A program made the position numbers and the translations under genes. This document shows positions 44,785-64,000 of a DNA stretch of 64,000 nucleotides, one piece after another; position 1 is the stretch's first letter; every line of letters begins with the position of its first letter. The stretch spans positions 2,326,696 to 2,390,695 of the forward strand of contig NW_017264196.1 of the NCBI RefSeq assembly GCF_001619985.1. The letters run 5' to 3'. This DNA is from Xylona heveae TC161 (Eukaryota > Ascomycota > Xylonomycetes > Xylonales > Xylonaceae). The notes beneath the pieces were generated by a model. The model searched no databases. It was not told where the DNA came from and worked only from the letters and a program-made list of their open reading frames with translations.

Positions 44785-46198
44785 CTATGTAGCTACATTG
44801 CTACTACGGATGGTGGCTTCCAGCGGGAACACTGAGTTCTCAACTGTCACACCTGCATAAACCCGATCAAATCGCTCCTTCAGGTGTAATGCTTTTGTCC
44901 ATTCATACTCGGGATCACGCAGCCAAAGTCGGAGAAGGTGGCGTCTACAGACTGGCATTAGCTCTCTCCCCCGGCTAGAAATCGATGTCAGTACACTTAC
45001 TGTTTCTTACTGGAGTCAGTAAATGCCCCTCTGGCATGCAGAATGCTCAAGTTATTGGCGAACTGGATGTCGCCTTTGTGAAAGTCTAGCGAAATAGCTT
45101 CCCTCTCAGCCGTAAAATGAACGGCATCTAGGGCCTCTGCTTGGGCTTCGGTAAGTGGTGGAATGTTGGCCGACCGCTTGCAGTCCATGTAACCAGTCAA
45201 GTTCCTTCGGGAGTATTGGATGATAAGTCGCTCAGGGTCTGCGTCTGTAGCAGGCTGGTAGTATAGCAGGGGCCGCAGCTTGTATTGGTCACCGGCCGGA
45301 GCAAAACTGGACAAGTGTTATATCGTTAGTCCTTTCATAGCTATTTCGATGTAGTAGAATTTGGTCTTGGGTACGCGGTAAGCTTACTCGTCAAAAGGCC
45401 AAGGCTCGGAGAGCGTCTTGATCAAATCAGGGCGCGTAGCAGCAAGTACGTTATAAACATGGCAGGTACTTGCAAGATAGCTCTCACCACCCGATTCACT
45501 TTCGCTCAAACAGAAGAGAGCAATAACATCGCCAGCATCAGTGTGGAACACCTGCTTATCGGCAGTCACCACAGGACCAGGGATGTCCTTAGAGTTGCTT
45601 GACTGACTCAGATCCTTAACATGAGCAACAAGGACATCGGCTGGTCTGCCTTGCCATTTGTTGTCTTGGCGACCACGAATAGGAGCAACATGTGACGAGA
45701 GGCCGGCGTAAATGATAACATTCTCTTCGCGGGTGTAGCTGTCTACAGGAAGACCGCGGATCACTTTGAAACCACGGCCATTATGGACCTCGTTGGAGAT
45801 TTCACGCAATACCGCATGCAACTTGGGCAAGGGAAACGTGTCTGGGGAAAGCTCACCCATCGGCTTGTTCAACACTATTGAGAAGTTAAAAACTATCCGT
45901 AAACGTGGCCTTTTTTTGTTGGGAGGGCGGATGTAGATTCAAGCATACACTTAAAGTGTCGAAGAGCATTGTTGATCTCATCGAGGTCCTCGGCCGTCAG
46001 TTGGTAATTCCAGTCGTACTTGTTGACTAAGGAATTGGCATCCCAAACAAGATCGCCAGATAAACTAGAGGGAAAGCCCTTGGGAAGCTGCTTATCGAGC
46101 TTCTCGTTTTCTTGTCTGCGCTTGCCGCGTGCCAGATATTTGTCATAATTGGGCATGTACCCAATGTCGGCATGTCCATTAGGATATGAAAAAGTCAT
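44785..46198 (-). CDS. TauD/TfdA-family Fe(II)/2-oxoglutarate dioxygenase, 400 aa
   Basis: Minus strand: exons 46198-45949, 45874-45388, 45306-45001 and 44944-44785; phases agree (donors GTATGC, GTAAGC, GTAAGT). The iron triad is visible: H194-x-D196 in VFHTDAGD and the distal His336 in ILHARGAF. The 2-oxoglutarate-binding Arg is in the RHLLRLW segment (about 349-353). Family members hydroxylate or cleave small amines, sulfonates, betaines or amino-acid-like acids in the cytosol. It shares a 460-bp divergent promoter with a Zn2Cys6 regulator and stands beside an amine oxidase and amino-acid permeases, pointing to catabolism of a nitrogen compound; the substrate is unknown. Confidence 0.9.
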
Positions 46199-46479
46199 AT
46201 TGACATTGCATAAAGGAGTGATAATCTCCTAATTTGACAGAGAAAAGAACAGATCAGAGACATATATATAGACATGATATGCTGCTTCCAGCTTTTGTAT
46301 TCAGACTCTATTTCGAAGATGACTATTAACATAAGTACAACGATGTTGCAATCTAACATTCAGATTGCGAAATCGTTTCACGCAAACCATTAGAAAACTT
46401 TTTCTTCTTTCCATACCAATGGATAATGAACGGCGGGGTAATAAAAAACAAGGGAAACTTTTGGAACGTGTCGACGGCG

Positions 46480-46588
46480 TCGGAGTCGGCGTCGGAGTGG
46501 CAGTCGGAGTGGCAGTCGGAATAAATATCGGAGTGTCAGGCCCCGCTAAGCCCAAAGTAGGGTCAATCGACTCAACTCCGATCGGAAT
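46480..46588. promoter_or_regulatory. 12-bp-phased TCGGAGT array plus inverted pair in divergent promoter
   Basis: Between the dioxygenase (starts 46198, minus) and the Zn2Cys6 regulator (starts 46659, plus). TCGGAGT starts at 46480, 46492, 46504 and 46528, with TCGGAAT at 46516: five copies at an exact 12-bp step. At 46575-46588 the inverted pair ACTCCGA-TCGGAAT follows. Each copy holds a CGG triplet, the usual half site of Zn2Cys6 proteins. Seen: the sequence and spacing. Inferred: an operator for the adjacent regulator. The rest of the 460-bp gap shows nothing coding. Confidence 0.55.
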
Positions 46589-46658
46589 TGCTTATACAGT
46601 ACGAAAAAAAGGTAAAATCTTCAAACTACGGCATTTCCGATCTATGTGAATGTACATA

Positions 46659-48955
46659 ATGCCGACTCTGAACTCGAACCGCCTGACGTCAAGGTCCGGC
46701 AAGCTTCCCGCATGTGACCCATGTCGGGCAATGAAGCTGCGATGCGACCATGGGAGACCGGCTTGTTCGAGATGTAGGGAAAGAGGCAGAACTGCTGACT
46801 GTGCATATCGGGCGAGACCATTCAGAAGACCCTTTGGTCGGACTTCAGACGAGCAGAAGCAAGTGAACCCCAGTCTCGAATGGCACTCTGTGCGTGGCTA
46901 GTGTTGTGTGGCATCATATTAACAATATCAACACCGTTTTAGGCCCAGAGAAGATGAAGCAAGCTCTGTGGTGCCAAGTCCGGGACTTTCCAGAGATCCG
47001 GTAGTCCCATCCGTTCAATATCCCAACCCGGGCTATTTAGGATCGTCTAGCCATACGACACTCTTCAATCAGCTACAGCTTCCAATAGATACAGAATCTG
47101 GTGTTTCGAGTCGAGAGACCGAGTATACCTCAACCGCACAGACGGATTATGTAGTTAATGATACCTGCATCTCAAGGGGCGCAGAGCTTATCCTCGAACT
47201 GCATCGTGTATCTTTGATCCAGCCGTTCGCCCAGCTCTTCAAGAAATGGGAAAGCACAGGAACAAATCTTGCTCTAGCCGGTCCCTTCACCGGGCCTTGT
47301 GCATCCACAGCTGTACACACACTGTCACAATGTGATGGAACACTTACAACTGCCACAGCCATTTCCAGGAACCTCTTTTATCGTTCCCGTCGTCCTATAT
47401 CCTTCAGTTCAGATACAACATTTGATGAATACTGTATTAACTTCTCTGGACGAAACGCTCGATGGGAAACTTTTGGACTCTTCTTCACTGCCGTTTGTCG
47501 AGCCTCTGTAGACCTGGCTTATGCAGAACCTCTCTATGGCTCGGAGCAACAACGCCGTAAAATCCAAAAATTGACACTCTCATACTCAGACCAATGCTTA
47601 GACCTTTGTCTACCGCTGGATTGTATGAATGATTTGCAACTTTTTCTCCAATATGAGAATTTTATCTCTCATTCGCAGGTTGATGGTGATCAGAGTAAGT
47701 GATTTTCGTCTTAGAAGCTATGCAATTCGAAATACCAAGAATTTATTCCAGGCTACCTCTCTTGGCGGAAACTGGGAGACGTAGCAGCCTCCCTATTCGC
47801 TCTTGGCTACCACCAACAACAAACAGAGTCATTTCGCGCTACCCCTCACTTCCTTCGTGATCTTCGCCAAAGAGCTTTTTGTCGGACATACTCAGCAGAT
47901 AAAAATGTGTCAATATTTCTCGGAAGACCACCTCGAATCATACGCAAGTTTTGTCGCTTTTATCTTCCAGGGAAACATCCACAGGACACCCAGGAAGCGT
48001 CTCGCAAGCCAGCAGTCTGGGACTTTGCTGAAAAGCCGGATTTCATCACGGACTCCAGGTGGGCCGCTCTTTGTGCAATATTAAAGGAGGATATATTGGA
48101 TTTGTTTACCGAGGAAAACTATGACGAAAGGGTCCGACAGGCACGGTACGTGGTATTGATTCCTATGCTTCTGGTTTAGCTTACGACTGACGCTATTATC
48201 AAGGCTTATAGATGATGATGCCCATGCTCAATGGAATGCTGTCCCTAATATCTATCGTCTTGAGTGTAGTCTCAAGGCTTGTGACCGTCGACCAGTGGAG
48301 CGTGACTTGATGGTCAATATGAAGCTCAATTATCTTCATGTACAATTTCTTTTACGGCTGGCATTACTCCGCCCTATTACCACGGATCCGGATCAAGAAC
48401 TAATTCGTATTTCTACGGACATGCTTGGTCTTGTTGTAGAGACAATTATGCTCAAGGACCAGATCATCAATTCTGGCACATCGTTAGTCTGGAAGGTAAG
48501 TCAGGGACCTACACATTGGAATGAATTAACTCATCCATATTTTAAAATTCAAGGTTGCATACTATGGCTTATCAGCCGCTGGGCTGATATCCCTAACCCT
48601 TATAAACCGATCCTTTGCTACAGAGACCCTTTACAGTAGTATATCCAAAGTGTTCCAAGACCTGAGCATCCTGGTAGGAGAGATTGAATGTGGAACACTA
48701 GTTTATGTTGACTCACCCAATTATGCCCTACTGGCTCGTGCCTCTGAAACAATTAAGAGTCTCCTGGACCGCATAATGTCCCCTTTATGCAACATGACAA
48801 CAGCTTTGGGCAATCAACCAGATATGCAAGTAGAGTCCGACCAGATGACTACTTCGGAAGATGGCACCTGGGGGCTGTGGGACAGCAACAGTCTCCAAGA
48901 TTTTGAAATCAACTTCTGGCACAATCTTGCTGTCCATCCTTTTCTTAGTCATTAG
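46659..48955 (+). CDS. Zn2Cys6 transcription factor with fungal_trans domain
   Basis: Exon 1 46659-about 46889, then 46943-47694, 47752-48145, 48204-48495 and 48554-48955. The last three introns are clean GT-AG and in phase. Exon 1 holds the zinc cluster: Cys 19, 22, 29, 36, 39 and 48. Exons 2-5 carry the fungal_trans region, including the YLSWRKLGD and SADKNVSIFLGRPPR signatures, and end with a Trp-rich tail. The first junction is a problem: the best acceptor (TTTTAG at 46942) needs a donor in phase 2, but the only good donor (GTGCGT at 46890) is phase 0. Either a non-standard donor is used or an indel breaks the gene. By position it is the candidate local regulator of the 44.8-58.6 kb cluster. 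Confidence 0.8.
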
Positions 48956-49394
48956 ACGGAAAAAGTCTATAGAAGAACAGTTTATTAGATCAAGCATTAG
49001 TCAATTAGCATGACTCATGTCATTAAGTACCAATGTTTTTCCAACTTAGCACCGACCTACACTACGGAGCTCATGTAGTCACCTGCAAGAGAACCCTACT
49101 GAAGGTAGATTTACACATACGTTCTTTTGTTTTATTATAAGCCATGGGATGAGCCGATAGATTCGTCTGGCCCTCACCTTCTGGACAGTATAAGTACATT
49201 AAATAGCATGCCGGTTTCTACATCAGCACCGTTAGCTCATGCTTTACACAATCAAACAAATCTATATAGTCAAAACATTGAGATAATAATCAATGACATT
49301 CATTAAATCAGTCATCGCTCAATGGACCCACTAAATTCGTTGATAAGCACAGGGATGCTCTAGAAATAAAATTAAAAAAGGGAGAAGAGAGAGC
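48956..49394. other. Convergent 3' intergenic region
   Basis: Lies between the 3' ends of the regulator and the amine oxidase genes. No gene. Confidence 0.5.
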
Positions 49395-51227
49395 CTATAC
49401 GCGACTTCCGACCAACTGCTTCGATACTTCCGTCGCAGACCGCTCGCCGCTGCGCACCGCGCCCTCCATGAAACCTTTCCACTCGACAGAAGTCTCTGTG
49501 CCGGAGAAGTGAACGTTCCAGAAGGGCTCGCGGAGTGCATCCCCCGCTGCAGACAGAACTCCCGGAGGTAGAGAGGGGCAGGGGCAGCCAAAGCCAGAGT
49601 ACTGCTCTGCGGTCCAGTCGTGCCAGACTGTGGTCAGGTACTCGCTGAGAACGCGGGTCTTGTCGCTGTACATCAGCCCGATCTGCTCGAGCAGTGAATC
49701 CGTTCTAATTTTATCGTCCTGCTGAGACCACGTTCGACCCGTATCACCGCACAGGAAGCAGGTCAGAATCCAGGCATCGTCTTCCGGGGAGCTGCAGTCC
49801 CTAATGATAGAGGCAGGACCTGTGAAAGATTGAGCAAGTCCGCAGAAGCCCTTCTCTGCCCAAAAGGGATTTTTGAAAACAAGCATGGCTTTCGTGAAGT
49901 ATCCATAGGTGTACGAGTCGACTAGCAACTGCTTGCGTGCTGGAAGCGTAGGGGTGAACTGAATGCCGCGAAGAACGGGACTGGGAACCGTGGAAATGAC
50001 CTTGGACGCTTGGAAGATTCGATTACCGGTTTGGACGTACACACGGTTTGGGTATGATTGGTTCACTGCTGTCACAGGGGAGGAAAGAAGGATGTTTTTT
50101 GAGGGGAGAGACGCAGCTAGGCCTTTGCAGATGGACTGGGTTCCCTGGCGAATGCGCAGATACTGGCCCCCGCCAACGCGGTCGGAGCGCATCTGGAGGA
50201 GTCCGCCGCCGGCTTTGCAGTGGTGGAGGAAGTAGAGGGCTGATATGTCCTGGGGCTCTTGGCCCAGCATGGCACGGGACCAGATTGACGCAGACGCAAT
50301 GGCGGTTTCGCTTGCATTGCGGCTGCAGAGGTAGGCGAGGAAGGTCATAGCATCGTGGATAGGGTTTTGAGGATTAGCAGAGTCGAGCTGCTGACAGTCT
50401 GCTTCGACAAGATCCCGAATTTCGCCGAGGTGCTTTTGTGTTTCGGTGTCAAACTGGGCGGTGGTTAGTTCAAGAGGATCGGATGACAGGAAGGCAGAAG
50501 ACCGATAGCTTACGGGAAGCCCGCCGTACGCAAAGACGTGGCTGCTGCCGGCCTTATCCTGCGCGAGGCAGTTGCCACTAGTGTTCTGCGTGATGAACTC
50601 GACTTCAAAACGCCTGGCCAGCTTGGAGACTTTGCTCTGGTTGGTGTTGTTTAGCCAGGAGGCTCCGATATCGACAATGCCTTTCCCGTGGGACAAAGAG
50701 GCGCTCCACGTGCGGCCTCCGACGCGGTCACGGGCCTCAAGGACAAGGCATGAGAGTCCGGCTTGAATGAGTTGATCGGCTGCCGTGAGACCGGACAGAC
50801 CAGCGCCGAGGACGATGACATCCCACGCCTTCTGGTCGACAGTGGGCAGTGGCTGCGGGATGGAATGGGAGATGGCAACTTCAGCGTCGAGGAGGAATTG
50901 CCATCCGGGCTCCGCCAATTGAGTCACCGGGACAAGGTTGATAATGGGATTATGCCCGCGCAGGAAACGGTGGAGGTGGCGGGTGTGTTGGAGCTCTCGG
51001 CGATTATAGTTGACAATGTAAAGGGTCAGGCGGGCGATACCCACGATGGAGCCACCGGCAGCTAATAGAGCCCGGTGAAGGTCCAAAAGCGAGAGAAGGA
51101 CCTGAGAGTCAAAGTCTGCAGGGACCTCATTCGAAACGGGAGAGCGTGGTTGCCCAGAAACGTGTATCAGACCCATCGGGGCAGTCCCCAACGGCGCTGA
51201 TGCAATTGCATTCACTGGGGGAGCCAT
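49395..51227 (-). CDS. RidA-like domain fused to FAD monoamine oxidase (MAO-N type), 610 aa
   Basis: Single exon on the minus strand, ATG at 51227. Residues about 15-122 form a RidA/YjgF-like domain (HVSGQP start, then a helix-strand core ending LLDAEVAIS). From about 134 comes a flavin amine oxidase: VIVLGAGLSGL at 137-147 with GxGxxG, DRVGGRTW at 167-174, and near the C-terminus HFSGTETSVEWKGFMEGA, the FAD-binding end typical of fungal MAO-N. The oxidase would turn a primary amine to an imine, then aldehyde plus ammonia and peroxide. RidA proteins hydrolyse reactive imines, so the fusion makes chemical sense. However, the usual RidA Pro-Ala-Arg site reads NPII here, so the catalytic Arg may be lost. 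It is divergent from an amino-acid permease. Confidence 0.92.
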   Translation of the reverse strand: MAPPVNAIASAPLGTAPMGLIHVSGQPRSPVSNEVPADFDSQVLLSLLDLHRALLAAGGSIVGIARLTLYIVNYNRRELQHTRHLHRFLRGHNPIINLVPVTQLAEPGWQFLLDAEVAISHSIPQPLPTVDQKAWDVIVLGAGLSGLTAADQLIQAGLSCLVLEARDRVGGRTWSASLSHGKGIVDIGASWLNNTNQSKVSKLARRFEVEFITQNTSGNCLAQDKAGSSHVFAYGGLPVSYRSSAFLSSDPLELTTAQFDTETQKHLGEIRDLVEADCQQLDSANPQNPIHDAMTFLAYLCSRNASETAIASASIWSRAMLGQEPQDISALYFLHHCKAGGGLLQMRSDRVGGGQYLRIRQGTQSICKGLAASLPSKNILLSSPVTAVNQSYPNRVYVQTGNRIFQASKVISTVPSPVLRGIQFTPTLPARKQLLVDSYTYGYFTKAMLVFKNPFWAEKGFCGLAQSFTGPASIIRDCSSPEDDAWILTCFLCGDTGRTWSQQDDKIRTDSLLEQIGLMYSDKTRVLSEYLTTVWHDWTAEQYSGFGCPCPSLPPGVLSAAGDALREPFWNVHFSGTETSVEWKGFMEGAVRSGERSATEVSKQLVGSRV

Positions 51228-51794
51228 TACCAGTGATTAACTGCTTGGTCGAGACATGAAAGCTAAAACAAAGATTACAATTGCTTGGCCGGCATGATGA
51301 TGGCTTAGGGTCAGTCCTCCTACCTAGCAGTCACATTGTGTTTTATTTTATTTTATATACTATATTTGCAAATTTTCTCCCCTCCATTTTTAAACCTTTT
51401 TTCTTCCAAAACATATATAATTAGATAACGTACCTTGTATAACTGACATAAAATGGGACTTCGGAGTTGGAGATATCGGAGTCGGGATGTGGGGCGAGAA
51501 CCAGAGAGGAAGAAGCGGGTTGCTCACTTGCCCGACAGCAGTCTGGCTTCAGCGGTGATATTTTGACCCACAACCCGTCCCCTATACACCTCCTGTTTGG
51601 CCAATTGCTCCTTTCTCTCAAATGATGTGATATCTGGCTTGGAGCTCCTCATTTATAGATTATCAAATTACATACCTGAGCATAGAACAGCTATCTATTT
51701 ACAATTTGACAATAAGAAGACTCAAAGATGACCGAAGACTACCTTACTCGAACATCAGTCTCAAAAGGCCGCTGCATTCTCTCCACTTCACGAC
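51228..51794. other. Divergent promoter, amine oxidase / permease
   Basis: 567 bp between the two start codons. AT-rich 51340-51425; holds the paired TCGGAGT sites given separately. No gene. Confidence 0.5.
51461..51482 (+). promoter_or_regulatory. Paired TCGGAGT sites
   Basis: TCGGAGT at 51461-51467 and 51476-51482, same strand, 15 bp apart; the second is within ATATCGGAGTCGG, which shares ATATCGGAGT with the array at 46.5 kb. Located between the amine oxidase and permease starts. Candidate shared operator; inference. Confidence 0.45.
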
Positions 51795-53648
51795 ATGCCA
51801 CTAGATTCTGCTGAGAAACAGCTGCCTTTGGGTGGGACGTCCAGGGCCTCTTTTGACCTTCCTGTTAATGCAGAAACCGAAAATGTCAGCGCCGACCGAC
51901 TGGCGCGCAAGCTATCCCCTCGCCAGGTCCAGATGATTGCAATCGGTGGCACGATAGGAACGGGATTATATCTCGGAACCGGTAGGGCATTAGCCACTGG
52001 CGGTCCAGCGTCAATGCTACTGGCCTATACAATCTGTGGTGGGATTGTCTTTGTCACCATGTTGAGCCTGGGAGAAATGGTGGCATTCGTTCCTGTAACA
52101 GGCTCATTCTGTACATTTGCGGGGTAAGCTTCACCTCGCGGTAGCAAGATCCAACCTTTCTCTAACTATCTCAGACGTTTTGTGGACGAAGCTCTAGGAT
52201 TTGCATTGACATGGAACTACTGGGCTAATGATGCAGTCTCCACTGCTTCAGATGTTATAGCACTGCAGATTTTGCTAGAGTACTGGACCGAGCATTTCCC
52301 CGGCTGGGCTCTCAGTCTTATCTGCCTCGCGTTTGTTCTTTGCTTGAATCTCTGCTCTGTGAGAATCTACGGAGAGGCAAGTACATTGAATGCAAGGCCG
52401 CGCAAGTGACATCTAACAAGATTTTAGACTGAGTACTGGCTGTGTTTGCTCAAGGTTGTGACCATTATAGTAAGTTTGCTGCTATCATCCCACTTATGTG
52501 TGCGGCATTTCTCATAAATCTCAGGTCTTCATTATTGTTGGCATTGTTGTGAACTGTGGTGCCAATACCCAACATACATATTTTGGTGACAAATATTTCT
52601 ATGTGGATGATGCACCCTTTGTTGGTGGGATTGGGGGCTTTGCCTCTGTTTTTGTCACAGCGTCTTTTGCATAGTAAGATGCAAACCCACTACAACATTC
52701 AACTGCTGTTCCTAACTGTTGGGCAGCGGCGGAACAGAAAACGTTGCAGTCACTGCCGGCGAGACGAAGAATCCAGCGCGGACTTATCCCCGTGTCATCC
52801 GCAACGTCTTCTGGAGGATTCTCCTTTTCTACGTGGTGTCAATCATCATCATCGGTCTCGACGTACCATATAACCATTCCAATCTTTCCAGCGAAAAATC
52901 ATCTACCAGCCCCTTTACGATTGTCTTTTCCGAAGCCGGTAGCGCCGTGGCAGGGAGTTTTATCAACGCCGTGATCATGACAAGCGCAATCTCGGCAGCC
53001 AATCACGCCCTCTTCGGGGGATCAAGGCTTCTCTACACTTTAGCTATAGAAGGATATGCCCCACGTCAACTTGGACTCATCAACCGCTTCCAAATTCCGT
53101 GGGTAGCGGTTCTTGCCACGGCGACTATCAGCGCACTCTGCTTCGGGGCTAGCAAAATCGGTACCGGTCAGCTCTGGTCCTGGTTGCAGAACCTAGTCGG
53201 AGTCTCCAACCAGCTCTCTTGGATGTGTATCTGTATTGCCTCACTCCGATTTCGTGCCGCCATTCGTCGTCAAAACCTGGAGCATCTGCTCCCTTTCAAA
53301 AACTTTACATACCCGGTAGGCCCGGCACTAGCAGTCGGGTTGAATATTTTCCTTGTTCTCATTCAGGGCTGGTCCTGCTTTAGCCCGAAGTTTGATGTGG
53401 TCAGTTTCGTGTCATACTATATCGAGATTCCGATTATGCTAGCCATGTTCTTGGGCTGGAAACTCTACAAAAATACTAAAATCGTTCCCCTCGATGAGAT
53501 GGATCTGATCACGGACAGATATCAGCTTGAGACTCAAGGAGAGATTCTTCCGGACTTGCATGGTCTCGACACCACTCGGACGAGTAGCTGGTTTGATAAT
53601 ATACCAGGAATGAGAATGTTAAAAAGCATCGAAAATTGGATAATTTGA
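51795..53648 (+). CDS. Amino-acid permease (APC superfamily, YAT type), 547 aa
   Basis: Exons 51795-52123, 52175-52376, 52428-52469 (42 nt), 52525-52673 and 52727-53648. Intron 2 (52377-52427) begins GCAAGT after GAG and is a GC-AG intron; the join restores the frame and the conserved YGETEYW segment. About 12 helices. MIAIGGTIGTGLYLGTG in helix 1 is the family's substrate-binding glycine motif; GGTENVAVTAGETKNP follows helix 6; the tail carries DLIT and Glu/Asp-rich parts like Gap1-type permeases. It imports amino acids or related amines with protons at the plasma membrane. Divergent from the amine oxidase; paired TCGGAGT sites lie between them. A second permease of equal length is at 56.7-58.6 kb. 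Confidence 0.93.
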
Positions 53649-54810
53649 AGGTTCTGGCATGTACATAATAAATTGAAGGCTAGAAATGTGTGTTTGACTT
53701 GCAAGCGACCTACGACCAGCTGTGCATGACATGTAAATTGGACCCAGGGCTCTACAAATGTAACGCTTGCCAAAGCAGACCCTCTTTGTTAAGGGATGGT
53801 GAAAAGGTCTCACGAGCACGGCCCATCAACCGTCAATTTTAACGATTACGAGGAAAGAAAACGGAATTGGTAGACAAGAAGATCGAGTGGCAGCGACCAG
53901 AAAGTCATCTGGCTAGATGCTGACCGAAAATTAGTAGTATACCAGCTACATCTGCAATGTAGAGCATACCGAGGGAACATGTAACAATCTGCATTTTGCA
54001 TTTTCAACAAATTCTAATAGAATAGCCTCGAAAATGTGGTCGTGAAGACTAGTGCTGCTAGTGTCGGGATACGATCAATGTCCAATCGGCGTGAAGCTTG
54101 ACTCCGAAGCCCCACCATAGCACAACACCGGACCAATAATATAACGAGTAAGTACTGCCGAGAGCTGCCGACTCGCAATGGTTCATCTATCAAAATGCCA
54201 ACGGGATAGGCAAAAACGAACCTATTCCAACGAATACACTATAGAGGCATGTTCTGAATGTATTTCTTTACTAACATAGCAGAGTATTCATATACAATAC
54301 ACCAGTCATTATCTAGCCGGCTGTTACAGGGTAGAAAAAGGAGAATAAGCCTGAGAAATGTCAGGCTAAATCAAAGTTCTACTCTAGAGAGAAATACTAA
54401 TATTTCCAAGTAAGGTTACTACGTCGAGGCAGACCTAGCTATATCTTGATTTGTGTTCTATAATGTTATGTACGGTTTATCTACTTCTCACCTGCCTGAA
54501 GGTACTGCTACTCTAGTATAAACGATGATAAATATTATTAATCATACAAAAAGCAGGGCAAGAAGAATGACAAATGATCTAAACTCCGATAGGGCCAGAG
54601 GTGCAGAGCTTAGGACAATCCGGCAATGATAAGGAATGATAAGGTATCATAGCAAGCCTTAGTGCCTGTATATACTAGAGATAACCCTGGATATAAAAGG
54701 TAGTGATGCATTCATATCATTTCCGGTGAGACCGTATATCTTATTTCCGAACATATACCATTACCAAAGTCATTTGGTAGTACTTAATTACATTTAAATT
54801 CCTCATAAAA
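53649..54810. other. Intergenic upstream of TPR gene with ACTCCGA sites
   Basis: No gene. ACTCCGA (the reverse of TCGGAGT) occurs at 54101-54107 and 54583-54589, the latter 228 bp before the TPR gene start. Confidence 0.5.
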
Positions 54811-56544
54811 ATGTTACTCATTTCAGATTCTCTTGTCCCGGCCTCCCCGACAGATGAATACTACGACCTGGGAGCATACAGCCGCTCAATCAGCGCCGCG
54901 AATGAGGCAGCGAAAGTCTGGTTCAATCGTGGCCTCATCTGGAGTTATTCATTCAATCACGCCGAAGCTTACCGATGTTTCGAGCAAGCGATCGTACATG
55001 ATCCAATCTGTGCCATGGCCTACTGGGGGTTAGCCTACGCCGCAGGACCAAACTACAATAAGGCATGGCGGATGTTTGATCCGGTCGATCTCGAGCGCAG
55101 CATGAAGATCTGCCACGATGCTGCGCGCTACGCTCTAAGCCTCTGCCACACCAGCCCGACGACGCCTGTCGAGCGTGCCCTGATCGAGGCAATGCAGGCG
55201 CGGTTCCCTGTCGATCATCCTGTTGAAGATTTCTCACTCTTGGACCAAGCGTACGCTCAGGCCATGAAAAGGGTCTACGACCAGTTCGGTTCCGACGATC
55301 TAGATGTGGTGACACTATATGTGGACGCCCGGATGCACACAAGCCAGCGCAAGATGTTCCACCTCAAGACCGGCCTTCCTATCGAATCATCACCAGTCGA
55401 AGAAGTGAAACAGCTGTTCAAAATTGGACTACAACACCCAGGCGGAGAGGAACACCCAGGCCTGATCCATTTTTCCGTTCACTTTTGGGAGATGTCCGCC
55501 ACACCCGCCGTTGCACTCCCGGCTGCCGATCTTCTTAGGCATCTTGTTCCAGATGCAGGTCACATCCATCATATGCCGACCCATCTGGATGTCCTGGTTG
55601 GTGATTATCGCCGCTCTGTAGATTCCAACACGGCTGCTGTGCTCGCCGATGAAAAGTATCTCGCCCGCGAAGGCGCCAAAAATATGTACAGTTTCTACCG
55701 CTTGCACAATTACCATTCGCTGGTCTATGCTGCCATGTTATCCGGCCAGTCGAAGGTCGCCTTGCGCGCTATCGATCGCATGGAACTCTCGATTACAGAT
55801 GACGTCCTTCAAGTCCAATCACCTCCACTTGCCGACTGGCTGGAATTCTTCAAGTCAGTCCGTATCCACGTCTATATCCGGTTCGGGCTCTGGGAGGAAC
55901 TGAAAGCTCTTCCCATTCCCCATGATCAAGACCTCTATTGCGTCACCACAGCAATGACACACTACGGAAAAGGCATCGCCTGGGCCGCGACCGAGAACAT
56001 AACAAAAGCTGAGAAAGAGCGAGAATTGTATCAGGCAGCCGCGAAACGAGTGCCACCCACGCGCAAAGATTATCCAAATCTCGTTATCGACATCCTCAAG
56101 GTCTCGACCGCCATGTTGGATGGTGAAATCGAATACCGGAAAAAGAACTTCACAAGTGCATTCGAACGGCTGCGCGAGGCAATTCACCACGATGATTCGC
56201 TCATGTATACAGAACCCTGGGGGTGGATGTTACCCACCCGCCATGCATATGCAGCGCTGTCACTTGAGCAAGGACTTGTGGAACAGGCTCTGACGGCTTA
56301 TGCAGAGGACTTGGGTCTGGATGGTTCACTCACGCGGGCACATCAGCATCCAAACAATGTGTGGGCGCTGCATGGATACCATGAGTGCTTGATGCGCTTG
56401 GGACGCGAGCCGGAGGCAAGGATTATCAAACAGCAGTTGGATATAGCAATGGCAGTGGCAGATATTGATATTAAGTCCTCTTGCTTTTGTCGATTGAGGG
56501 TAGTACAGGATCAGAATGGAGACATGTCAGCGTGTTGTAGTTGA
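54811..56544 (+). CDS. TPR-repeat protein with HxHHMPxH motif, 577 aa
   Basis: Single exon. The product is almost all helical, with tetratricopeptide-like repeats: the first around residues 35-75 (WFNRGLIWSYSFNHAEAYRCFEQA), later ones near 460-545. A histidine-rich stretch HIHHMPTH at about residues 251-258, followed by LDVLVGDYRR, is a compact candidate metal site; I recall similar TPR proteins in bacteria, which suggests an old or transferred gene, but this is unverified. The last 25 residues are Cys-rich. No signal peptide or membrane segment. It stands between two amino-acid permeases and downstream of a TCGGAGT-type site. Function unknown. Confidence 0.82.
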   Translation: MLLISDSLVPASPTDEYYDLGAYSRSISAANEAAKVWFNRGLIWSYSFNHAEAYRCFEQAIVHDPICAMAYWGLAYAAGPNYNKAWRMFDPVDLERSMKICHDAARYALSLCHTSPTTPVERALIEAMQARFPVDHPVEDFSLLDQAYAQAMKRVYDQFGSDDLDVVTLYVDARMHTSQRKMFHLKTGLPIESSPVEEVKQLFKIGLQHPGGEEHPGLIHFSVHFWEMSATPAVALPAADLLRHLVPDAGHIHHMPTHLDVLVGDYRRSVDSNTAAVLADEKYLAREGAKNMYSFYRLHNYHSLVYAAMLSGQSKVALRAIDRMELSITDDVLQVQSPPLADWLEFFKSVRIHVYIRFGLWEELKALPIPHDQDLYCVTTAMTHYGKGIAWAATENITKAEKERELYQAAAKRVPPTRKDYPNLVIDILKVSTAMLDGEIEYRKKNFTSAFERLREAIHHDDSLMYTEPWGWMLPTRHAYAALSLEQGLVEQALTAYAEDLGLDGSLTRAHQHPNNVWALHGYHECLMRLGREPEARIIKQQLDIAMAVADIDIKSSCFCRLRVVQDQNGDMSACCS

Positions 56545-56701
56545 AATAAAATAGTATAACAAATGTTAGAAATTTGATACGGAGGCTACGAGGACTACCA
56601 AGTGATTAATTAGGCAGTTTCAAAACGACTATATACCGCGTATACAATTACTTTAAGAGTAAAACATCGCGGGAAAGGAAAATGAATAAGAACAACGTAA
56701 T

Positions 56702-58554
56702 CTAAAAGAATGCTCGAACAATCCCAATCCCATGATCCTTCCACGTCCGCGGCCTCTCCGGTGGTGCAACCTCATCAACTTCATCCAGATCAATTTCCCT
56801 CAACCCATAATTGAGATCCATTTCATGACTGCGCACAAAAAGCTTCCAGTCTCTCGACCACAGTTTCCAGAGAATGTACAGCGCCAGGATAAGCGGAGCC
56901 GCAAGAAAACTTACAAAAAAGTCATACGCAGTACCCAGCTGTCCATTCGGCCAGAGGGAGGTATAAAACGTAGCAATAATGCACAATATAGACAAGATCA
57001 GCCCGACCCAGCTGCCGTAGATGCCAAACGCCGCTTGAAAGGGGAGTTTGCTTCGACTATGACCTTGGACTCTCCAGCCTTTGCGAAAGCGGATATTGGA
57101 TGCGCATATACTGCCCCAGGTGAAGAACGAGGACAAGCCCCCGAGAGCGAGGAGCCAGTCAAAAACAGTTTCAGACGACGAGGCTTCGGTGACGTAGGCG
57201 ATGAATCCGAAAAGGATCTGAATGGCAATACAAAACAAGGGACGACCGTGCTTGTCGACGTAGCTTAGAAAGCTGGGCGCCATGCCATGCAGTGCGAGGG
57301 CTTGTAGTGTACGCGAGGAGCCATATGTGCATGAATTGGCAACACTAACGACCGAGACTGTGATGATGGCGTTGAAGACTGATGGCAGACCACGGATGCC
57401 GGCCATGCGAATAGCCAGGACAAAAGGGGAGTCCTTGGTATCGCTGTCGCCGGCTTTTAGAAGGTTAGGTGAATCCGCGGGTACAACGATGCCCAGGATG
57501 AGCAGGGAGACAATGTAGAAAAAAGTTATTCGCCAAAAGACCTGCTTGGTGGCTTTGGGAAGGGATTTTCGAGGGTCAGCCGCTTCTGCGGCGGCAAGAC
57601 CAATGAGTTCTGTCCCGCCAAAGGAAAATGCAGCTGTCACAAAGACGGAGCAGAATCCGGAAAAGCCGTTGCGAAAAGCGCCAGGTTCTTTCCAGTATCT
57701 GAAACCAATGTAGCCGCGGTTGTCGGTGGGGACACCGCCGCAGTCGATGATGATGCCGAGGATCATGAAGCCGATAATGCCGAGGATTTTTATTATTGCG
57801 AGAATAAATTCGACTTCGCCGTATCCGCGTACACCAAAGATTTGAATGGCGCAGACAACGACAAGGAAGACTGTGACCCAGACGCCGTTATTGATCTTGT
57901 CATTCCAAAAGTCAATGGTTAATCCGGCGGCCGTGAGTTCAAAGGGCAGCGTGGTGAGCCAGCCAATTGCGTATTCCCAGCCCATTGCAAAGCCCCTATA
58001 CGTAGTGTTAGCAATGGTGATGCTAAAGAAGGCGGAGAGATATTGGCTCAGCCTAAGCAGGGAAGTAATTCACCAGGAAGAGTCGAGAAAGCGGGTAGAG
58101 TATGTAAAGAAGGCTCCATTGACGGGATATAGAACAGCCAATTCACCAAGAGCCTGCACGGTACATAAAAGCATGATGCCAATTATAATGAAACAGATGA
58201 GCTATGGCATTGTTAGTCTTCATGGTTCAACATTTCCTCAGAGTTTGCAATTAAAATTACCAGACTTGCAGGCCCACCGCTTTCCAGGGCACTGCCAGTG
58301 CCCACAAAGAGGCCAGCGCCAATGGCACCACCTAAACTGTGTCAGCCCGATCCGGAGTCCGAATGAAGACAATCACAGAACAATTTGACTGTGCATAACT
58401 TACCTATGGCAATCATCTGCATATGGCGCCCCTTTAGGTCACGATTCAACGCATTTTGTGCTGGCGGAGGTCCGACATATCCGACTTCCACATCCTCTTT
58501 GTTCTTTGCCGCAGAAAGAGTTTCTTGAGGCCTAGGACCTTTGCCCACCTCCAT
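56702..58554 (-). CDS. Amino-acid permease (YAT family), 547 aa
   Basis: Minus strand: exons 58554-58404, 58331-58261, 58201-58074 and 57995-56702; all GT-AG, phases agree. Helix 1 has MIAIGGAIGAGLFVGTG, helix 2 to 3 ALGELAVLYPVNGAF, then RFLDSSWGFAMGWEYA, and FGGTELIGLAAAEAADP after helix 6, all strong marks of the fungal amino-acid permease family (Gap1/Dip5-like). It ends with an acidic REIDLDEVDE tail. Transports amino acids at the plasma membrane; specificity unknown. It is convergent with the TPR gene and similar in length to the permease at 51.8 kb, but intron positions differ, so the two are not a recent duplicate. Confidence 0.95.
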
Positions 58555-59543
58555 TTCAAATAGAGATTTATTGCTAGAGCAAGAAGTGCTATACAGCACC
58601 AGTAAAAAAACCAAAGGTCGAGTGAAGAAAAGATTTTACCCCGGGGCGTATATTTGACTGACCTCAAGTATACCTGTGCCATAGTATCGCTTATACATAT
58701 TAGAGATTGAGCTGTAGAAAGTGCCATATCTCCACATCAATGAGTGCGAGAAGCACATTATGAGTCTAGCCAAGGGTCAAAACATGGGTTTCGAGATGTA
58801 GATCCCTTGGCCGCGAGAGCGAGCCCATCCGAATTTGGAAACTTTATCAAATGGTCGTATGTTTTGCAAGTGGCTAGATGATGTGGAGATAAGGTGCTTG
58901 ATAGCAATTGCGTTGACGTGCTCCACAAGAGTGGAATATTTGAATTGCACAATATCACTGGTACTAGATTACTAGCACAGGATCAGTTAGATTAGAAACC
59001 AAACCGCGGCCATTCCCGCACGTCTGGAAAGCTTGACCGACAGTGGGCCAATGACAGATGGAGAACATGACAATATTACCCGCTTATTCTAGAAAATCTC
59101 CGCCAATCTAAGCGCAACCGCATCCACACCCCTCGCCTCTCTGCTGGCAACAATTGCCCCTTTTCGCCAGGGGGGATCCAATAGATAAGGGCTCGCCGAC
59201 ATAATTCGTTGCAATTACCGTATCGAAATGAACCATTCCCGCAGCCCGGGGCCAGGACTGGTCCCATGCACCATGCATCTCGGTTTGAATCAGGGTTGGC
59301 CGTGCTGGCCGATTTGGCCGTCTGGTCGATAGCTGGCCATGTGGATCATTTGCCTATCGTGCTACAGTATCTCTTCAGTCGTTGTCTGGTACAGTACTCC
59401 TATGTTGTATCTACCACTCTAAGTGTATGTTATAAGGTCCGAAGTGCTGCAACTGAGAGACGCTGTAATATATGGTACATTCCAGGTCTTCTCAGATTGT
59501 GTCATTTAGACCCTCACCTGCGTGATCTGTAAAAGAATCGATT
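58555..59543. other. Divergent upstream region of permease and FSH hydrolase
   Basis: Frames are short; no gene. No TCGGAGT site was found here. Confidence 0.5.
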
Positions 59544-60388
59544 ATGACAGGGATTGCGACAAATGGGGCGACGCCCCAGACGATGAAGATACTTATGATT
59601 CATGGTGCCTCTTCCTTGTATTTGGATCAATAACACCGTACTCTGCAACACGTCTGCTGATCATCCCTGCTACGGAAACAGGCTACACTGAGACTGCAGA
59701 GTCTTTCCGAGCCGACATGTATCGTGTAGAAAAGGCCCTCAATGAAGCCTTTCCCGCTGCACCGACACCCGGCTACCATCCATCCTACCCGGGCGGTGTC
59801 GAACTCATCTACCCAACCGGCACATGGAGGCTCAAGCCGACAGATTGGGCTCGCTACATACCAGGAGCCGACCCTGGATATGGATGGTTTTACAAAGTTG
59901 CCGACGACGATGAATTTCCAGGATTACTTGATGGCTTGACCCTTCTTGGTAATGTGATGAGGACTCAGGGTCCCTTTGCCGGCGTTATCGGGTTCTCGCA
60001 AGGCGGCTTTTTGGCTGGCCTGATTGCAAGTTTGCTGGAGGCGGGGAGAAAGGAAATATTTGATAAGGTTGAAACGGGGAGTGGAGGAATTCCGTACCCT
60101 GCAGCCTTTGTAGGGGTGCAGCCAATTAAGTTCTCGGTCAGCTGCTGCGGGTTTGCCGGGCTGAGCTTGCGATACAAAGCCTTTTATTCACCCAAGATAT
60201 CGGTGCCTCTACTGCATATCAATGGTAGTACAGATGACATTGTGTATGACAAGAGGAGCCGCACTCTGATTGATGCAACGACCGGAACAGAGGAGGGAAA
60301 GGTCCTTATTCACCCCGGTGGCCACATTGTGCCAATGACAAAATTGTACACGGATGCCCTAATTATGTGGATCCGTGATAAGCTTTAA
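59544..60388 (+). CDS. FSH1-type serine hydrolase, 255 aa
   Basis: Exons 59544-59604 and 59682-60388; a 77-bp intron (GTGCCT donor, acceptor ACAG) restores the family start MKILMIHGYTETAESF. Without this splice the N-terminus would read unlike the family. An alpha/beta-hydrolase of the FSH1 group: nucleophile Ser126 in GFSQGG, acid Asp in STDDIV (205/206), and His235 in GGHIVP. Such enzymes hydrolyse esters or thioesters; some act in secondary-metabolite pathways, others are housekeeping. The first ATG at 59544 is used; the ATG at 59583 would remove a 13-residue lead and fits the usual family start. Last intact gene before the retroelement. Confidence 0.85.
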
Positions 60389-60789
60389 GATACCAATGGT
60401 AAAGTATTGAAATAACTAGAGAAATTAAAGAAAGAATAACCTTAACCTGTCAAATCCTAGATTCAATGTAGTATTATACTTAAAAGATAGCAAAATTATA
60501 GCATTAGAAAAATATTTAATTATATAAATATATTAGTTTAATTTAAGTTTTATTTAAATTTTTTTAAAAAAAATTAAATATTTATAATTAAAATAAATTG
60601 TCAAGATATTTTGACATAGACTACTACATTTCAAGAACAATATTTAAGGCTTATTATATAATTAACTACTAAACTTGTTTATTAAGAGTAAGATATAGAT
60701 TGTAAAATAAGTTAAATTAAGGTTAATTATAGAGGGTTTTTCTACTTTTTCCAAAGAGTTAGACTTAGGAATTTATATAGTAAGAATTT
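60389..60789. other. Very AT-rich spacer
   Basis: From about 60450 the sequence is almost only A and T with TATAAATAT-like runs. No gene. Typical of transposon-rich or RIP-affected fungal DNA. Confidence 0.6.
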
Positions 60790-60892
60790 ATCAAACCATA
60801 GTTTAATTTGTTACTACAGTAAGAAATTACTATAGTTGGATGAATATCAAACCATGGTTTAATTTGTTACTACAGTGAGAAATTACTATAGT
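60790..60892. repeat. 47-bp direct repeat next to LTR
   Basis: 60790-60836 and 60846-60892 are 47-bp copies with two A/G differences and a 56-bp period. The second copy ends where the LTR begins, and its last base overlaps the LTR's first. Confidence 0.8.
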
Positions 60893-61413
60893 GTTATGGT
60901 GACACCTATGGATAGGTGTCAGGTTGTATCTTCCTAGATAGTTCCCTGTCAGTACATCAAGGGTTCTCACCTAGTAATATAGCATCCCACAATATTATTC
61001 AGTGATAGGAGTGATATAAGATGATATGATAATTCAGGTCTGGTAGATAAAGTAAACAATAAGATTGTTGTCATACTAATATCTGAATACTAATAACTAA
61101 CTATTGTTAAGCAGTAATGCTAGACAATAGACTTCAAGAACTATACAGAACAATTCTAGCTACATAGGAAAACCATCCTCCTTATATAACAGTCTATTCC
61201 AGTGGTCCTGTTTGTTGATTAGTGCTGATCAGCTATGATTAGTACTAATTACCCCTAATTACTACTGATCACTTTATTCAGCCACTGATCTCTACTTCCT
61301 TATCTTATCATCACATGACCCCTTGCCCCATGATATCATCAGCATACTGTGCCTCTGTACTTCATAAGTAGGCCCTGCACCATCTGTTACTGACCCTTGT
61401 AACCATCATTACA
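60892..61413 (-). repeat. Long terminal repeat (3' LTR of minus-strand element)
   Basis: 522 bp starting TGTTATGGTG and ending CATCATTACA. The ends are imperfect inverted repeats (TGTTATGGTG against TGTAATGATG). A 20-bp hairpin lies at 60901-60920 (arms GACACCTAT and ATAGGTGTC around GG). A polypyrimidine tract follows on the right, as expected for a minus-strand element. The other LTR is outside the window, so boundaries are inferred. Confidence 0.7.
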
Positions 61414-61418
61414 TTAGG

Positions 61419-61438
61419 TCCTCCCTTTTCATCCTTTC
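61419..61438 (-). other. Polypurine tract of the retroelement
   Basis: The plus strand is almost all C and T here, so the minus strand is a purine tract of about 20 nt that ends about 5 bp before the LTR, where plus-strand DNA synthesis would be primed. Confidence 0.6.
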
Positions 61439-62421
61439 AACTTGAAAGGCTGATTCCATGACCACTAGGTTTTTCCTTATAAGGGTAAGGCTCCCCTCCT
61501 TCTGCATTTTCTGTTTCTTCAACCTGTTTGCCTCCATCATGCCAAAAGCTGAATCTTTTTCTAAGTATTGTCACATCCTTGCTTCTAAGACAAGTCATTT
61601 GGGTCACAAGATGCCAACTCCCTGTTCTGCCTATCATCATAACAACTGTTGTTGTTTAATTTCCTTAGACTCTAGTCACTGTTCTGAGTGTATTTCTTGC
61701 AATTCTTCATGCAATCTTGTTGTTTTTGTCCATGAATGGGATTGTTTGTAGGAAGAGTACCACAAGCTTGAGTCCCAACTTGAGCTTGTCAAAGAACAGA
61801 CTTCTGAGCTTGCTACTCATCAGTTACACCTTTGTAAGCAACTAGGCAAATTGTCTTCTTGCAAGAAGGAACTATTCAATCACAAGTTGGCTTCTATAGA
61901 AGAGGTTGAACAACTGGAGCAATCCTCCAATCCCCAGGCTTCTTCTGAGCTTTTTATTAATCCTTCCTCAATCAATTGGTCCCTCTTAAATCTTCCAATT
62001 TCTTCTCCTTCAGGTGTTGTCAGTGGTATTTAACAATCTTCTCAGGGCAATTCAAATTGGTCCATGGTTTCCATGAATTTGATTCTTCCCTGTAGTCAAG
62101 CCATTTAACATAGTATTTCCATTGCTGACCTTCTTTCTTTACATCTAGAATTTCTTCAACATTATATTCTTTGTCTTCAGATGAAATGTCTAGTTCTTTT
62201 GCAAGTGGTATATCTTCTAGTGCTGGTTTTAATAGTGAGACATGGAATGTTAGATGTATTCTTGTTCCCTTAGGTAGTCATAATCAATATGTTACTTTGT
62301 TGACTTGTTTCTCAATTTCAAAAGGTCCTGCCTTGACATGATCCAACTTCTTGTTTGGTCTCTTGGATTTCAAGTTTCTACAGAGTAGGTAAACTTTACC
62401 CCCCTCCTTAAAGATTGGTCC
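61439..62421 (-). pseudogene. Retroelement pol C-terminus with chromodomain, broken
   Basis: The minus strand 62205-62040 encodes a chromodomain: an EYNVEEILD start, a YYVKWLDY core and a later aromatic/Trp region, the targeting module of chromoviruses. Just upstream, a FHVSLLKPA-like segment typical before chromodomains is preceded by two TGA stops at 62286-62284 and 62280-62278. From 61439 to 62030 the frame is lost. Confidence 0.75.
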
Positions 62422-62423
62422 AT

Positions 62424-63428
62424 TCAATCTCCCTTGATTGGCATATTCTTACATTTTCTGGTTTCTGAACTTGATCTCTTGTCATAGTGACTCATGGAGT
62501 TCCTTGATTCCTTGACTATATTGTAGTCCTTGTGGTAACATACCATCATTCTTGATTTCTGTTCTTTGAACCACTGGATCATATCTGTAATTTGCCTGAA
62601 ATGGTGACATTTTGATAGTATCTTGTTTTGTACTATTATATGTGTACTGAGCAACTGGTAACAATGGTACCTAATTGTCTTGTTAGTAGCTGATGTAGTG
62701 TTGTAGATACTGTTCAATGATCTAGTTGATTTGTTCAGTTTGTCTGTCTGTTTGTAGGTGAGCTGTAGTTGACATCTTGTGCTCTACTTCCAAGCTTGTT
62801 ATCATTGTTCTCCAGAACCTTGATGTAAATAGCTTATCTCTGTCAGTAATGAATTCCTTTAGTAACTGATGGTTTGCTATTACTGTTTGTAATACTAGAT
62901 ATGCCATTTGTTCTGCTATAGCCTCCTTTGTTATTGGGATGAAATATGTATATTTCATGAGTTGTTCCACAATTACAAGTAATGTGTTGTACTTTTGTCC
63001 TGTAACTAGGTTTGTTGATTCCAGTAAATCTGTAATAAAGTTTATTGTGACTAATTCCCATGGCCAATGTAGTACTTTTGGATTCTTCAAATTCCTATAT
63101 GGCTTATGTCTGCTTTTCTTGTCCTGGTTGCAAACATGGCATCCTTTGATTATTTCTTTAACTAACTTCCATATGCCTAGTATGTAGTAGTTTGCTGTAA
63201 TTTGTGCAACTGTCTTTGTAATTCCTGGATGTCCACTCATTGGTTCTTTGTGTATTTCTTTAACCAATTCTTTTTGTAGTTTCTGTAGTACATAGATTTG
63301 TCCTTCATGGTATAAGAGTCTGTCCTTAAGTGGTTCTCTTGCTTCATGATTTGTAGTTTTGTCATCTTGGGTTGCTTCCTATATTCATTGTTCCCAAGTA
63401 TCATGACTTTTAATTTGTAGTGCTGCAA
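62424..63428 (-). pseudogene. Retroelement integrase remnant (H2C2 finger and catalytic core)
   Basis: Minus strand 63267-62722 reads an HH-CC zinc finger (HPGITKT...CHVCNQD) and the integrase core: WELVTINFIT, ITDRDKLF and QTDRQTEQIN. The second catalytic Asp and the Glu are present, but the first, normally Asp in the DFI segment, is Asn (codon 63042-63040). The tail, including SPFQANY, is in another frame at 62664-62482. Broken by frame shifts. Confidence 0.8.
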
Positions 63429-63519
63429 TCATTTTTGCTCCATACACTAGGGTTCTGTTGCTGTCAAGCTTAAGTATTATGTCTTGTACTAGCTCCATGC
63501 CTTCCTTGTACTTTTCTTG

Positions 63520-63939
63520 TTAACTAAGTGTGTCTACAACTCTGTTTTCTTTCTCCTTTTTATAGTGTATTTGGAAGTTGTACTGAGCTAACATTTCTGC
63601 CCACCATACTTGTCTTCTGTTCAACTTCTTCATTGTTGTGAACATTGTAAGATTCTTATGATCTAAGTATATCATGGTTGTGTCTTTTGCTCCAAGCAAG
63701 TAGACTCTCCAATATTCCATTGCTAATACTACTCTGAGTAGTTCCTTGTCATAGATATTGTAGTTCAATTCTAGTGCCAATAGTTTCTGTGAGTAGAAGG
63801 CTACTGGATGTCTCTTGCCATCCTCTCCTATCTGTATCATTTGTACTCCAATGGCAAAGTCTGATGAGTCTGTCTTAACTTTGACTTCCTTTCCTGGTTT
63901 GTACATCCCAAGTCGAAAATTCCGGTTCAGGTTTGCCAA
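63520..63939 (-). pseudogene. Retroelement RNase H domain fragment
   Basis: Minus strand, about 140 codons: KTDSSDFAIG, a Gly-x-x-HPVAFYSQKL segment, ELNYNIYDKELL, YLDHKNLT and a final NRVVDTLS, the order of Ty3/gypsy RNase H. No ATG; it is the interior of pol. Codons before about 63905 (at the 5' side) do not match the expected reverse transcriptase thumb. Confidence 0.85.
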
Positions 63940-64000
63940 AAGGCCAGTCGTTCAACAACAACCTTCGGAGGTGGAATTGGCTGAAAATTGCACCAAGTCT

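What the first reader, a model, noticed from the sequence alone, without database searches (positions are those of the whole stretch)
44785..58554. Candidate amine/amino-acid catabolic cluster with its own regulator
Six neighbouring genes form a coherent set: TauD-type dioxygenase, Zn2Cys6 regulator, RidA-amine oxidase fusion, amino-acid permease, TPR protein with HxHHMPxH, and a second permease. Uptake, oxidation and control of one nitrogen compound is a natural reading, and promoters of three of the units share a heptamer. I do not recognise it as a described cluster.
Basis: partly seen in the sequence, partly recalled or inferred. Interest (0 to 1): 0.8.

Follow-up and report, generated by a model that had tools for sequence, protein, structure and literature searches.

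The report
Imported amino-acid/amine use gene cluster
A group of six neighbouring fungal genes, several of them apparently acquired from mould relatives of Aspergillus, looks like a small self-regulated unit for taking up and breaking down a nitrogen compound, with a repeated DNA signal in three of its control regions; it is an uncharacterised example of a familiar kind of gene cluster.

Summary
The six genes exist, intact, exactly at 44785-58554. The host is Xylona heveae TC161, class Xylonomycetes, not a Eurotiomycete. The shared heptamer is TCGGAGT: 9 of the window's 13 copies lie in three intergenic regions of 2.2 kb, where it is the most over-represented heptamer. Paired copies, at only 15 places in 24.3 Mb, also lie upstream of the regulator's only full-length paralogue, of an aminotransferase beside it, and of the oxidase's best paralogue. 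An autoregulated catabolic unit is thus supported for five genes; permease 2 lacks the motif. Four genes look acquired from Eurotiales (best named relatives: TauD 84%, TPR 82%, regulator 82%, oxidase 70%): the TPR tree rejects a Eurotiales clade without Xylona (p 5.8e-9), the oxidase (0.062) and regulator (0.36) trees do not. The block is not conserved in the three species that could be compared; TauD-regulator adjacency recurs once. The 'RidA' domain lacks the arginine needed for imine hydrolysis. Substrate and the TPR protein's role are unknown.

The parts
44785..46198 (-). TauD/TfdA-type Fe(II)/2-oxoglutarate dioxygenase, 399 aa; exons 46198-45949, 45874-45388, 45306-45011, 44951-44785
   Evidence: model; PF02668; 84% identical over 349 residues to the N-terminal part of Aspergillus novoparasiticus P0253
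46480..46581 (.). Five TCGGAGT copies (46480, 46492, 46504, 46528 on +; 46575 on -) in the divergent tauD/regulator promoter
   Evidence: pairs genome-wide
46650..48955 (+). Zn2Cys6 transcription factor, 682 aa; exons 46650-46858, 46943-47694, 47752-48145, 48204-48495, 48554-48955 (first intron GC-AG)
   Evidence: identical to P0241; PF00172 on an interim model; one full-length paralogue, C14; interim model
49395..51227 (-). RidA-like domain (about residues 1-125) fused to a MAO-type flavin amine oxidase, 610 aa, one exon
51461..51482 (.). Two TCGGAGT copies in the divergent oxidase/permease 1 promoter
51795..53648 (+). Amino-acid permease 1, 547 aa; exons 51795-52123, 52175-52376, 52428-52469, 52525-52673, 52727-53648 (second intron GC-AG)
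54101..54589 (-). Two TCGGAGT copies (minus strand, 54101-54107 and 54583-54589) upstream of the TPR gene
54811..56544 (+). TPR-fold protein with HIHHMPTH, 577 aa, one exon; single match in the genome
56702..58554 (-). Amino-acid permease 2, 547 aa, 4 exons; no TCGGAGT upstream, membership of the unit uncertain

Best explanation
A small catabolic regulon for an amino acid or amine, acquired by Xylona heveae from a Eurotiales donor and controlled by its own Zn2Cys6 regulator. Proposed working: permease 1 (and perhaps permease 2) imports the compound; the regulator, on sensing it, binds direct repeats of TCGGAGT in its own/tauD promoter, in the shared oxidase/permease 1 promoter and upstream of the TPR gene; the flavin oxidase deaminates the substrate (carbonyl product, ammonia, H2O2); the dioxygenase hydroxylates the substrate or a product; the TPR protein does an unidentified, probably enzymatic step. 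Shown: genes, motif enrichment, motif at the loci of the regulator's and the oxidase's paralogues, Eurotiales-like sequences of four genes. Inferred: binding, induction, substrate flow, roles of tauD and TPR, membership of permease 2, and transfer of the genes other than TPR.
For: Families. Motif: most enriched heptamer in the window's three intergenic regions; paired copies at only 15 places in 24.3 Mb (19 matches; reversed-pattern control 23): two here, two at the locus of the regulator's only full-length paralogue (three copies 100-141 bases before its ATG, two before an adjacent class I aminotransferase, PF00155), one upstream of the oxidase's best paralogue, where a third copy also lies; both paralogues were found by homology, not by the motif. 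Linkage: one A. novoparasiticus gene model joins this TauD (84% over 349 residues) to this regulator; of four TauD paralogue loci in this genome three were read: one lies about 2 kb from a permease gene, one about 1 kb from a short permease-like fragment with two stops, one has none nearby. Transfer: TPR 82% to A. wentii, sister with 99/97 support, AU p 5.8e-9 and 0.009; regulator 82% over 519 residues to A. wentii; oxidase 83% to a metagenome protein of unknown host and 64-70% to three Eurotiales proteins, the other full-length hits listed at most 56%.
Against: No expression or biochemical data. The AU test does not reject a Eurotiales clade without Xylona for the regulator (p 0.36) or the oxidase (0.062); the narrower TPR group (p 0.009) was chosen after seeing the tree. 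TPR and oxidase or regulator orthologues lie on contigs of different length in A. avenaceus, A. pseudocaelatus and Penicilliopsis zonata. Permease 2 has no motif. The loci read for TauD paralogues (three of four) and for the closest permease 1 paralogue show no TCGGAGT pair: 2 of 6 paralogue loci read do. Ten other places with pairs, five of them inside open frames, have no evident tie to amine use. Part of the motif array is repeat-like.
Confidence: 0.6

Rival explanations
1. Genes of general nitrogen or sulfur scavenging that happen to lie together near a contig (perhaps chromosome) end; the regulator controls only itself, tauD and perhaps the oxidase, and the TPR gene and permease 2 are bystanders.
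Against: Same heptamer in three separate promoters and at the two paralogue loci; similar Eurotiales affinity of four genes.
Confidence: 0.25
2. A sulfonate (taurine-like) utilisation unit: TauD releases sulfite, permease 1 imports the sulfonate.
For: TauD-family name; the closest permease 1 paralogue (70% over its longest piece) lies beside a molybdopterin oxidoreductase with the domains of sulfite oxidase; a sulfatase gene lies at 37.3-38.8 kb.
Against: By sequence the dioxygenase finds only 7n7v and FrbJ among solved structures at E<=0.01, no taurine dioxygenase, and its best curated models are gamma-butyrobetaine-type, far below cut-off. Taurine use has no obvious need for a MAO-type oxidase (judgement).
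Confidence: 0.08
3. Vertical inheritance: the genes are old in the Eurotiomycetes/Xylonomycetes lineage and were lost from many species, so no transfer took place.
For: Regulator and oxidase trees do not reject a Eurotiales clade without Xylona; in the TPR tree Eurotiales rows fall in several groups, a sign of old paralogues or repeated transfer.
Against: Xylona TPR is sister to A. wentii inside the Eurotiales group (99/97) and its exclusion is rejected; two Kwoniella (Basidiomycota) rows nest in the same group, so this family does move between fungi; 82-84% identity across fungal classes is high for such genes (judgement; no genome-wide baseline was computed).
Confidence: 0.17

Closest known systems
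DGD1-DGD2 segment of Saccharomyces (subtelomeric, horizontally acquired; PMC10169451, abstract and outline read)
   Same: Nitrogen-compound catabolic gene acquired together with its own zinc-finger regulator, near a chromosome end
   Different: Enzyme there is a dialkylglycine decarboxylase, substrate (2-aminoisobutyric acid) and induction shown by experiment; here a flavin oxidase, a dioxygenase, permeases and a TPR protein, nothing tested, and the window's contig end is not shown to be a telomere
Fungal pathway-specific catabolic clusters such as prn (proline) or alc of Aspergillus nidulans (recalled, no call)
   Same: Adjacent transport and enzyme genes with a Zn2Cys6 regulator whose sites lie in the promoters
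   Different: Different enzymes; substrate, inducer and binding site not established here
RidA-amine oxidase fusion proteins of Ascomycota (sources' names 'YjgF/Yer057p/UK114 family', 'Amine oxidase')
   Same: Same architecture; most listed full-length hits 48-56% identical, a small group of four 64-83%
   Different: The window's protein also lacks the glutamate at position 112 that 111 of 117 members keep and the arginine at position 93 that 108 of 117 have
Bacterial gene pairs of Rid family and FAD amine oxidase (PMC4433059, passages read)
   Same: Rid and FAD amine oxidase linked; imine product proposed as the reason
   Different: There mainly RidA, sometimes Rid3, which keep the essential arginine; here a fused Rid-like domain without it

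Membership tests
Rid family imine deaminase (RidA, Rid1-Rid3) | Arginine equivalent to Arg105 of TdcF | tested here: not met
   HMMER aligns position 96 (I) of the window's domain with the arginine of the P-A-R-S stretch of 5yu2; that column holds I 82, M 26, V 6, Q 2, T 1 and no arginine in 117 of 117 family members; role of the arginine from PMC4433059. That this R is the TdcF Arg105 rests on the motif, recalled
Rid family imine deaminase (RidA, Rid1-Rid3) | Rid fold by sequence | tested here: inconclusive
   PF01042 22.1 bits, cut-off 27.3; TdcF E 6e-5 over residues 19-76; most listed family members carry PF01042
MAO-type flavin amine oxidase | PF01593 over the full domain | tested here: met
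   E 2.6e-51, profile 1-442 of 443; human MAO-A E 2.5e-55; GAGLSG dinucleotide-binding stretch in the sequence
MAO-type flavin amine oxidase | Oxidation of an amine | not testable with these tools
   No assay
TauD/TfdA dioxygenase superfamily | PF02668, with HxD and distal His of the metal triad | tested here: met
   E 5.2e-32; VFHTDAGD and LSILHARG in the sequence; alignment to 7n7v and FrbJ; the motif itself recalled
Taurine dioxygenase proper | Closest relatives act on taurine | tested here: inconclusive
   Only 7n7v and 5eqn (FrbJ) at E<=0.01; NCBIfam matches far below cut-off
Zn2Cys6 (Gal4-type) regulator | Six-cysteine cluster | tested here: met
   PF00172 32.0 bits, cut-off 21; CDPCRAMKLRCDHGRPACSRCRERGRTADC in the sequence
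Fungal catabolic gene cluster with pathway regulator | One regulator site in the promoters of the cluster genes | tested here: inconclusive
   TCGGAGT in three of the four promoter regions, enriched; binding not shown
Fungal catabolic gene cluster with pathway regulator | Conserved gene order in relatives | tested here: not met
   Different contigs in A. avenaceus (TPR 103159, regulator 64119), A. pseudocaelatus (TPR 299107, oxidase 366035), P. zonata (TPR 2226714, oxidase 941199): 3 of 3 species with a close pair apparently from one assembly; a proxy, draft contigs may split a block; A. wentii, P. angulare and P. atrosanguineum not comparable (several assemblies); TauD-regulator joined in one A. 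novoparasiticus model
Fungal catabolic gene cluster with pathway regulator | Co-expression | not testable with these tools
   No expression data
Horizontally transferred segment | Gene trees nest the recipient inside the donor group | tested here: inconclusive
   Met for TPR; oxidase p 0.062, regulator p 0.36; TauD by identity only; permeases not tested
TPR protein | TPR motifs / helical repeat fold | tested here: met
   All-helical model, mean pLDDT 88.5; solved matches are mostly TPR or other helical-repeat proteins; PF00515 itself below its cut-off (24.6 against 27.8), though listed for P0001 among precomputed domains

The most novel reading that the evidence does not exclude
A complete nitrogen-catabolic regulon, enzymes, permease, regulator and its TCGGAGT cis-code, moved from an Aspergillus-like mould into Xylona heveae, where the imported regulator meets a resident paralogue that uses the same code on an aminotransferase and an amine oxidase elsewhere, so that one transfer rewired recipient genes; and its TPR-fold member is not a scaffold but a member of an undescribed, histidine-rich enzyme family shared by fungi and Actinomycetota.
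Probability: 0.2. Interest if true: 0.7.

Novelty: new member of a known kind. Interest (0 to 1): 0.45.

Why it matters
If right, it is a compact, testable case of a fungal nutrient-use unit crossing a class boundary together with its regulator and promoter code, with a ready prediction for the binding site (TCGGAGT direct repeats) and for two target loci outside the cluster. It would also give a pathway context for an otherwise nameless, strongly conserved TPR-fold family (131 of 577 positions at least 95% conserved in both 118 fungal and 80 bacterial sequences).

Tried and rejected
Bacterial neighbourhood of the TPR family: the best 80 of at least 569 loci, 79 of 80 titled as Actinomycetota; apart from the TPR gene itself no frame cluster recurs in more than 17 of 80, so no function could be read from it. 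Fold comparison of the TPR model gives general TPR and helical-repeat proteins; no enzyme relative stood out in the rows shown, which excludes none. Inverted TCGGAGT pairs: 4 places, control 5, none in the cluster, so a direct, not inverted, repeat. The other places with paired TCGGAGT: of the ten outside the cluster, the C14 locus and the C11 oxidase, five overlap an open frame of at least 130 codons (L020, L022, L023, L025, L027) and look like chance; one lies upstream of another Zn2Cys6 gene (L024), one upstream of an alpha/beta-hydrolase-like gene near a P450 (L017), both named by eye. The C14 paralogue as a baseline for vertical descent was rejected: its distance to Eurotiales paralogues (0.87-0.99) is about as large as distances among those paralogues summed from the same tree. 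Base composition does not set the block apart. Literature: no described cluster of this make-up appeared in the listings (0 papers; 1; 9; 12 of 17 shown; 2); open-access library only. The 2016 Xylona genome paper did not appear in the listings (20 of 44 and 10 of 25 shown) and was seen only as a reference.

Regulator model: the obvious GT-AG first intron gives a stop; two other introns were tried and one of them (686 aa) was used before the GC-AG model, identical to the public protein, replaced it. TauD intron 1 was first set two bases off and corrected.
Full report
What is there. All open after splicing with short introns; two introns are GC-AG (regulator 46859-46942; permease 1 52377-52427). 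Pfam gives TauD, Zn_clus, Amino_oxidase (with a weak Ribonuc_L-PSP match), AA_permease twice and weak TPR matches. The corrected regulator model equals the public protein L228DRAFT_260654 of Xylona heveae TC161, labelled 'partial' by its source, and the C14 contig length equals that listed for a second Xylona protein, L228DRAFT_257174. The host is therefore Xylona heveae, a Xylonomycete, and not a Eurotiomycete. The genome held has 24.3 Mb in 17 contigs and the window is the end of contig C4; no telomere repeat array was seen in its last 3 kb.

The motif. TCGGAGT occurs 13 times in the 64-kb window; 9 of the 13 lie in the three intergenic regions tauD-regulator (5), oxidase-permease 1 (2) and permease 1-TPR (2), and 2 more in permease 1 coding sequence. 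It is the first-ranked of 1813 heptamers in those 2.2 kb (9 against 0.54 expected). Four copies by the regulator form an imperfect repeat, so the count overstates independence, and the heptamer was chosen because it recurs here. The independent test is elsewhere: pairs of TCGGAGT within 30 bases occur 19 times at 15 places in the genome (reversed-pattern control 23 matches, so pairs are not enriched overall). The regulator has one full-length paralogue (C14, 36-48% identical by piece), and three copies lie 100-141 bases before its ATG, with two more before the neighbouring class I aminotransferase. The oxidase's best paralogue (C11, 37%, without the Rid-like part) has a pair about 950-980 bases and a third copy about 250 bases before its ATG. 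In the three promoters of that second set TCGGAGT is again the first-ranked heptamer (8 against 0.66); those stretches were fetched because they hold pairs, but both paralogues were found by homology. Four other paralogue loci that were read, three of TauD and one of permease 1, have no pair, so the count is 2 of 6; a fourth TauD paralogue on C3 (37%) was not read. Together this predicts TCGGAGT direct repeats as the site of this regulator family, with autoregulation.

Origin. The best relatives lie in Eurotiales: TPR 82% to A. wentii; regulator 82% over 519 residues to A. wentii and 75% over full length to Penicillium atrosanguineum; TauD 84% over 349 residues to A. novoparasiticus; oxidase 64-70% to Paecilomyces lecythidis, A. 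pseudocaelatus and Penicilliopsis zonata and 83% to a metagenome protein of unknown host, then 56% or less for the other full-length hits listed. The careful TPR tree places Xylona as sister of A. wentii (99/97) within the Eurotiales group; a Eurotiales clade without Xylona is rejected at p 5.8e-9, and a narrower one, chosen after seeing the tree, at 0.009. The rows were a choice: nine of the Eurotiales rows, seven of them in other groups of that tree, and two nested Kwoniella (Basidiomycota) rows were left out. The oxidase gives 0.062 and the regulator 0.36, so those trees do not decide. TauD was not put in a tree, the permeases were not placed at all. I hold transfer from Eurotiales as likely (about 0.8) for the TPR gene and probable for the set.

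Neighbourhood. Fungal genomes other than the host could not be read here; contig lengths of the listed homologues serve as a proxy. In three of three species with close orthologues of two of the genes apparently from one assembly, they lie on contigs of different length (A. avenaceus, A. pseudocaelatus, P. zonata). One case speaks for linkage: A. novoparasiticus P0253 is a single model made of this TauD followed by this regulator without its zinc cluster, which I read as two adjacent genes merged by annotation. In Xylona itself, one TauD paralogue (C14, 60%) lies about 2 kb from a permease gene and one (C5, 71%) about 1 kb from a short permease-like fragment with two stops, the third read (C8) beside none.

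The proteins. The oxidase is MAO-like over its catalytic part. Its N-terminal Rid-like domain lacks the arginine on which imine hydrolysis depends: HMMER places I96 on that arginine of 5yu2, and 0 of 117 family members have arginine in the column (requirement from PMC4433059, passages read); the window's protein has also lost the glutamate kept by 111 of 117. Its likely role is therefore structural or in binding, not imine clearance; this is inference. The dioxygenase keeps the metal-binding residues, but nothing ties it to taurine. The TPR protein has a confident all-helical model, fold matches to general TPR and helical-repeat proteins, one match in the genome, and 50-55% identical relatives in Actinomycetota. 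Its conserved set includes H215, H220, H224, H251, H254, H258, H299 and H302, which looks more like an active or metal site than a protein-binding surface; this is inference, as no coordinates were read.

Verdict. An ordinary kind of thing, a regulated catabolic cluster, in an unusual state: apparently imported, with a cis-code that also marks resident loci. Interest 0.45; new member of a known kind.

Noticed in passing
L019 (C14:9000-18900): Locus of the regulator's only full-length paralogue: next to it a class I aminotransferase with paired TCGGAGT upstream, an Asp/Glu racemase-like frame (below Pfam cut-off) and a frame that looks by eye like a class II aldolase.
   Followed up: partly
L016 (C11:694500-704400): Unfused amine oxidase with three TCGGAGT copies upstream, between a ketopantoate-reductase-like gene and another Zn2Cys6 gene (the latter by eye).
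   Followed up: partly
window 54811-56544 and L040-L119: TPR-fold family 50-55% identical between fungi and Actinomycetota with 131 positions at least 95% conserved in both, including twelve histidines; no function named in the listed sources.
   Followed up: partly
P0253 (Aspergillus novoparasiticus): A 971-residue public model joins TauD and the regulator, 33 member sequences; a merged annotation or a true fusion.
   Followed up: partly
L123 (C10:208500-218400): Closest permease 1 paralogue lies beside a molybdopterin oxidoreductase with the domains of sulfite oxidase.
   Followed up: partly
L028 (C3, last 6 kb of the contig): A stand-alone Rid-family gene (PF01042) about 450 bases from a contig end.
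   Followed up: no
window 60400-64000: AT-rich (35% GC) stretch that looks by eye like a decayed, RIP-affected retroelement between the cluster and the contig end; not tested.
   Followed up: no
window 37340-38770 and 59510-60385: A sulfatase gene and an FSH1-type serine hydrolase gene lie on either side of the region.
   Followed up: partly
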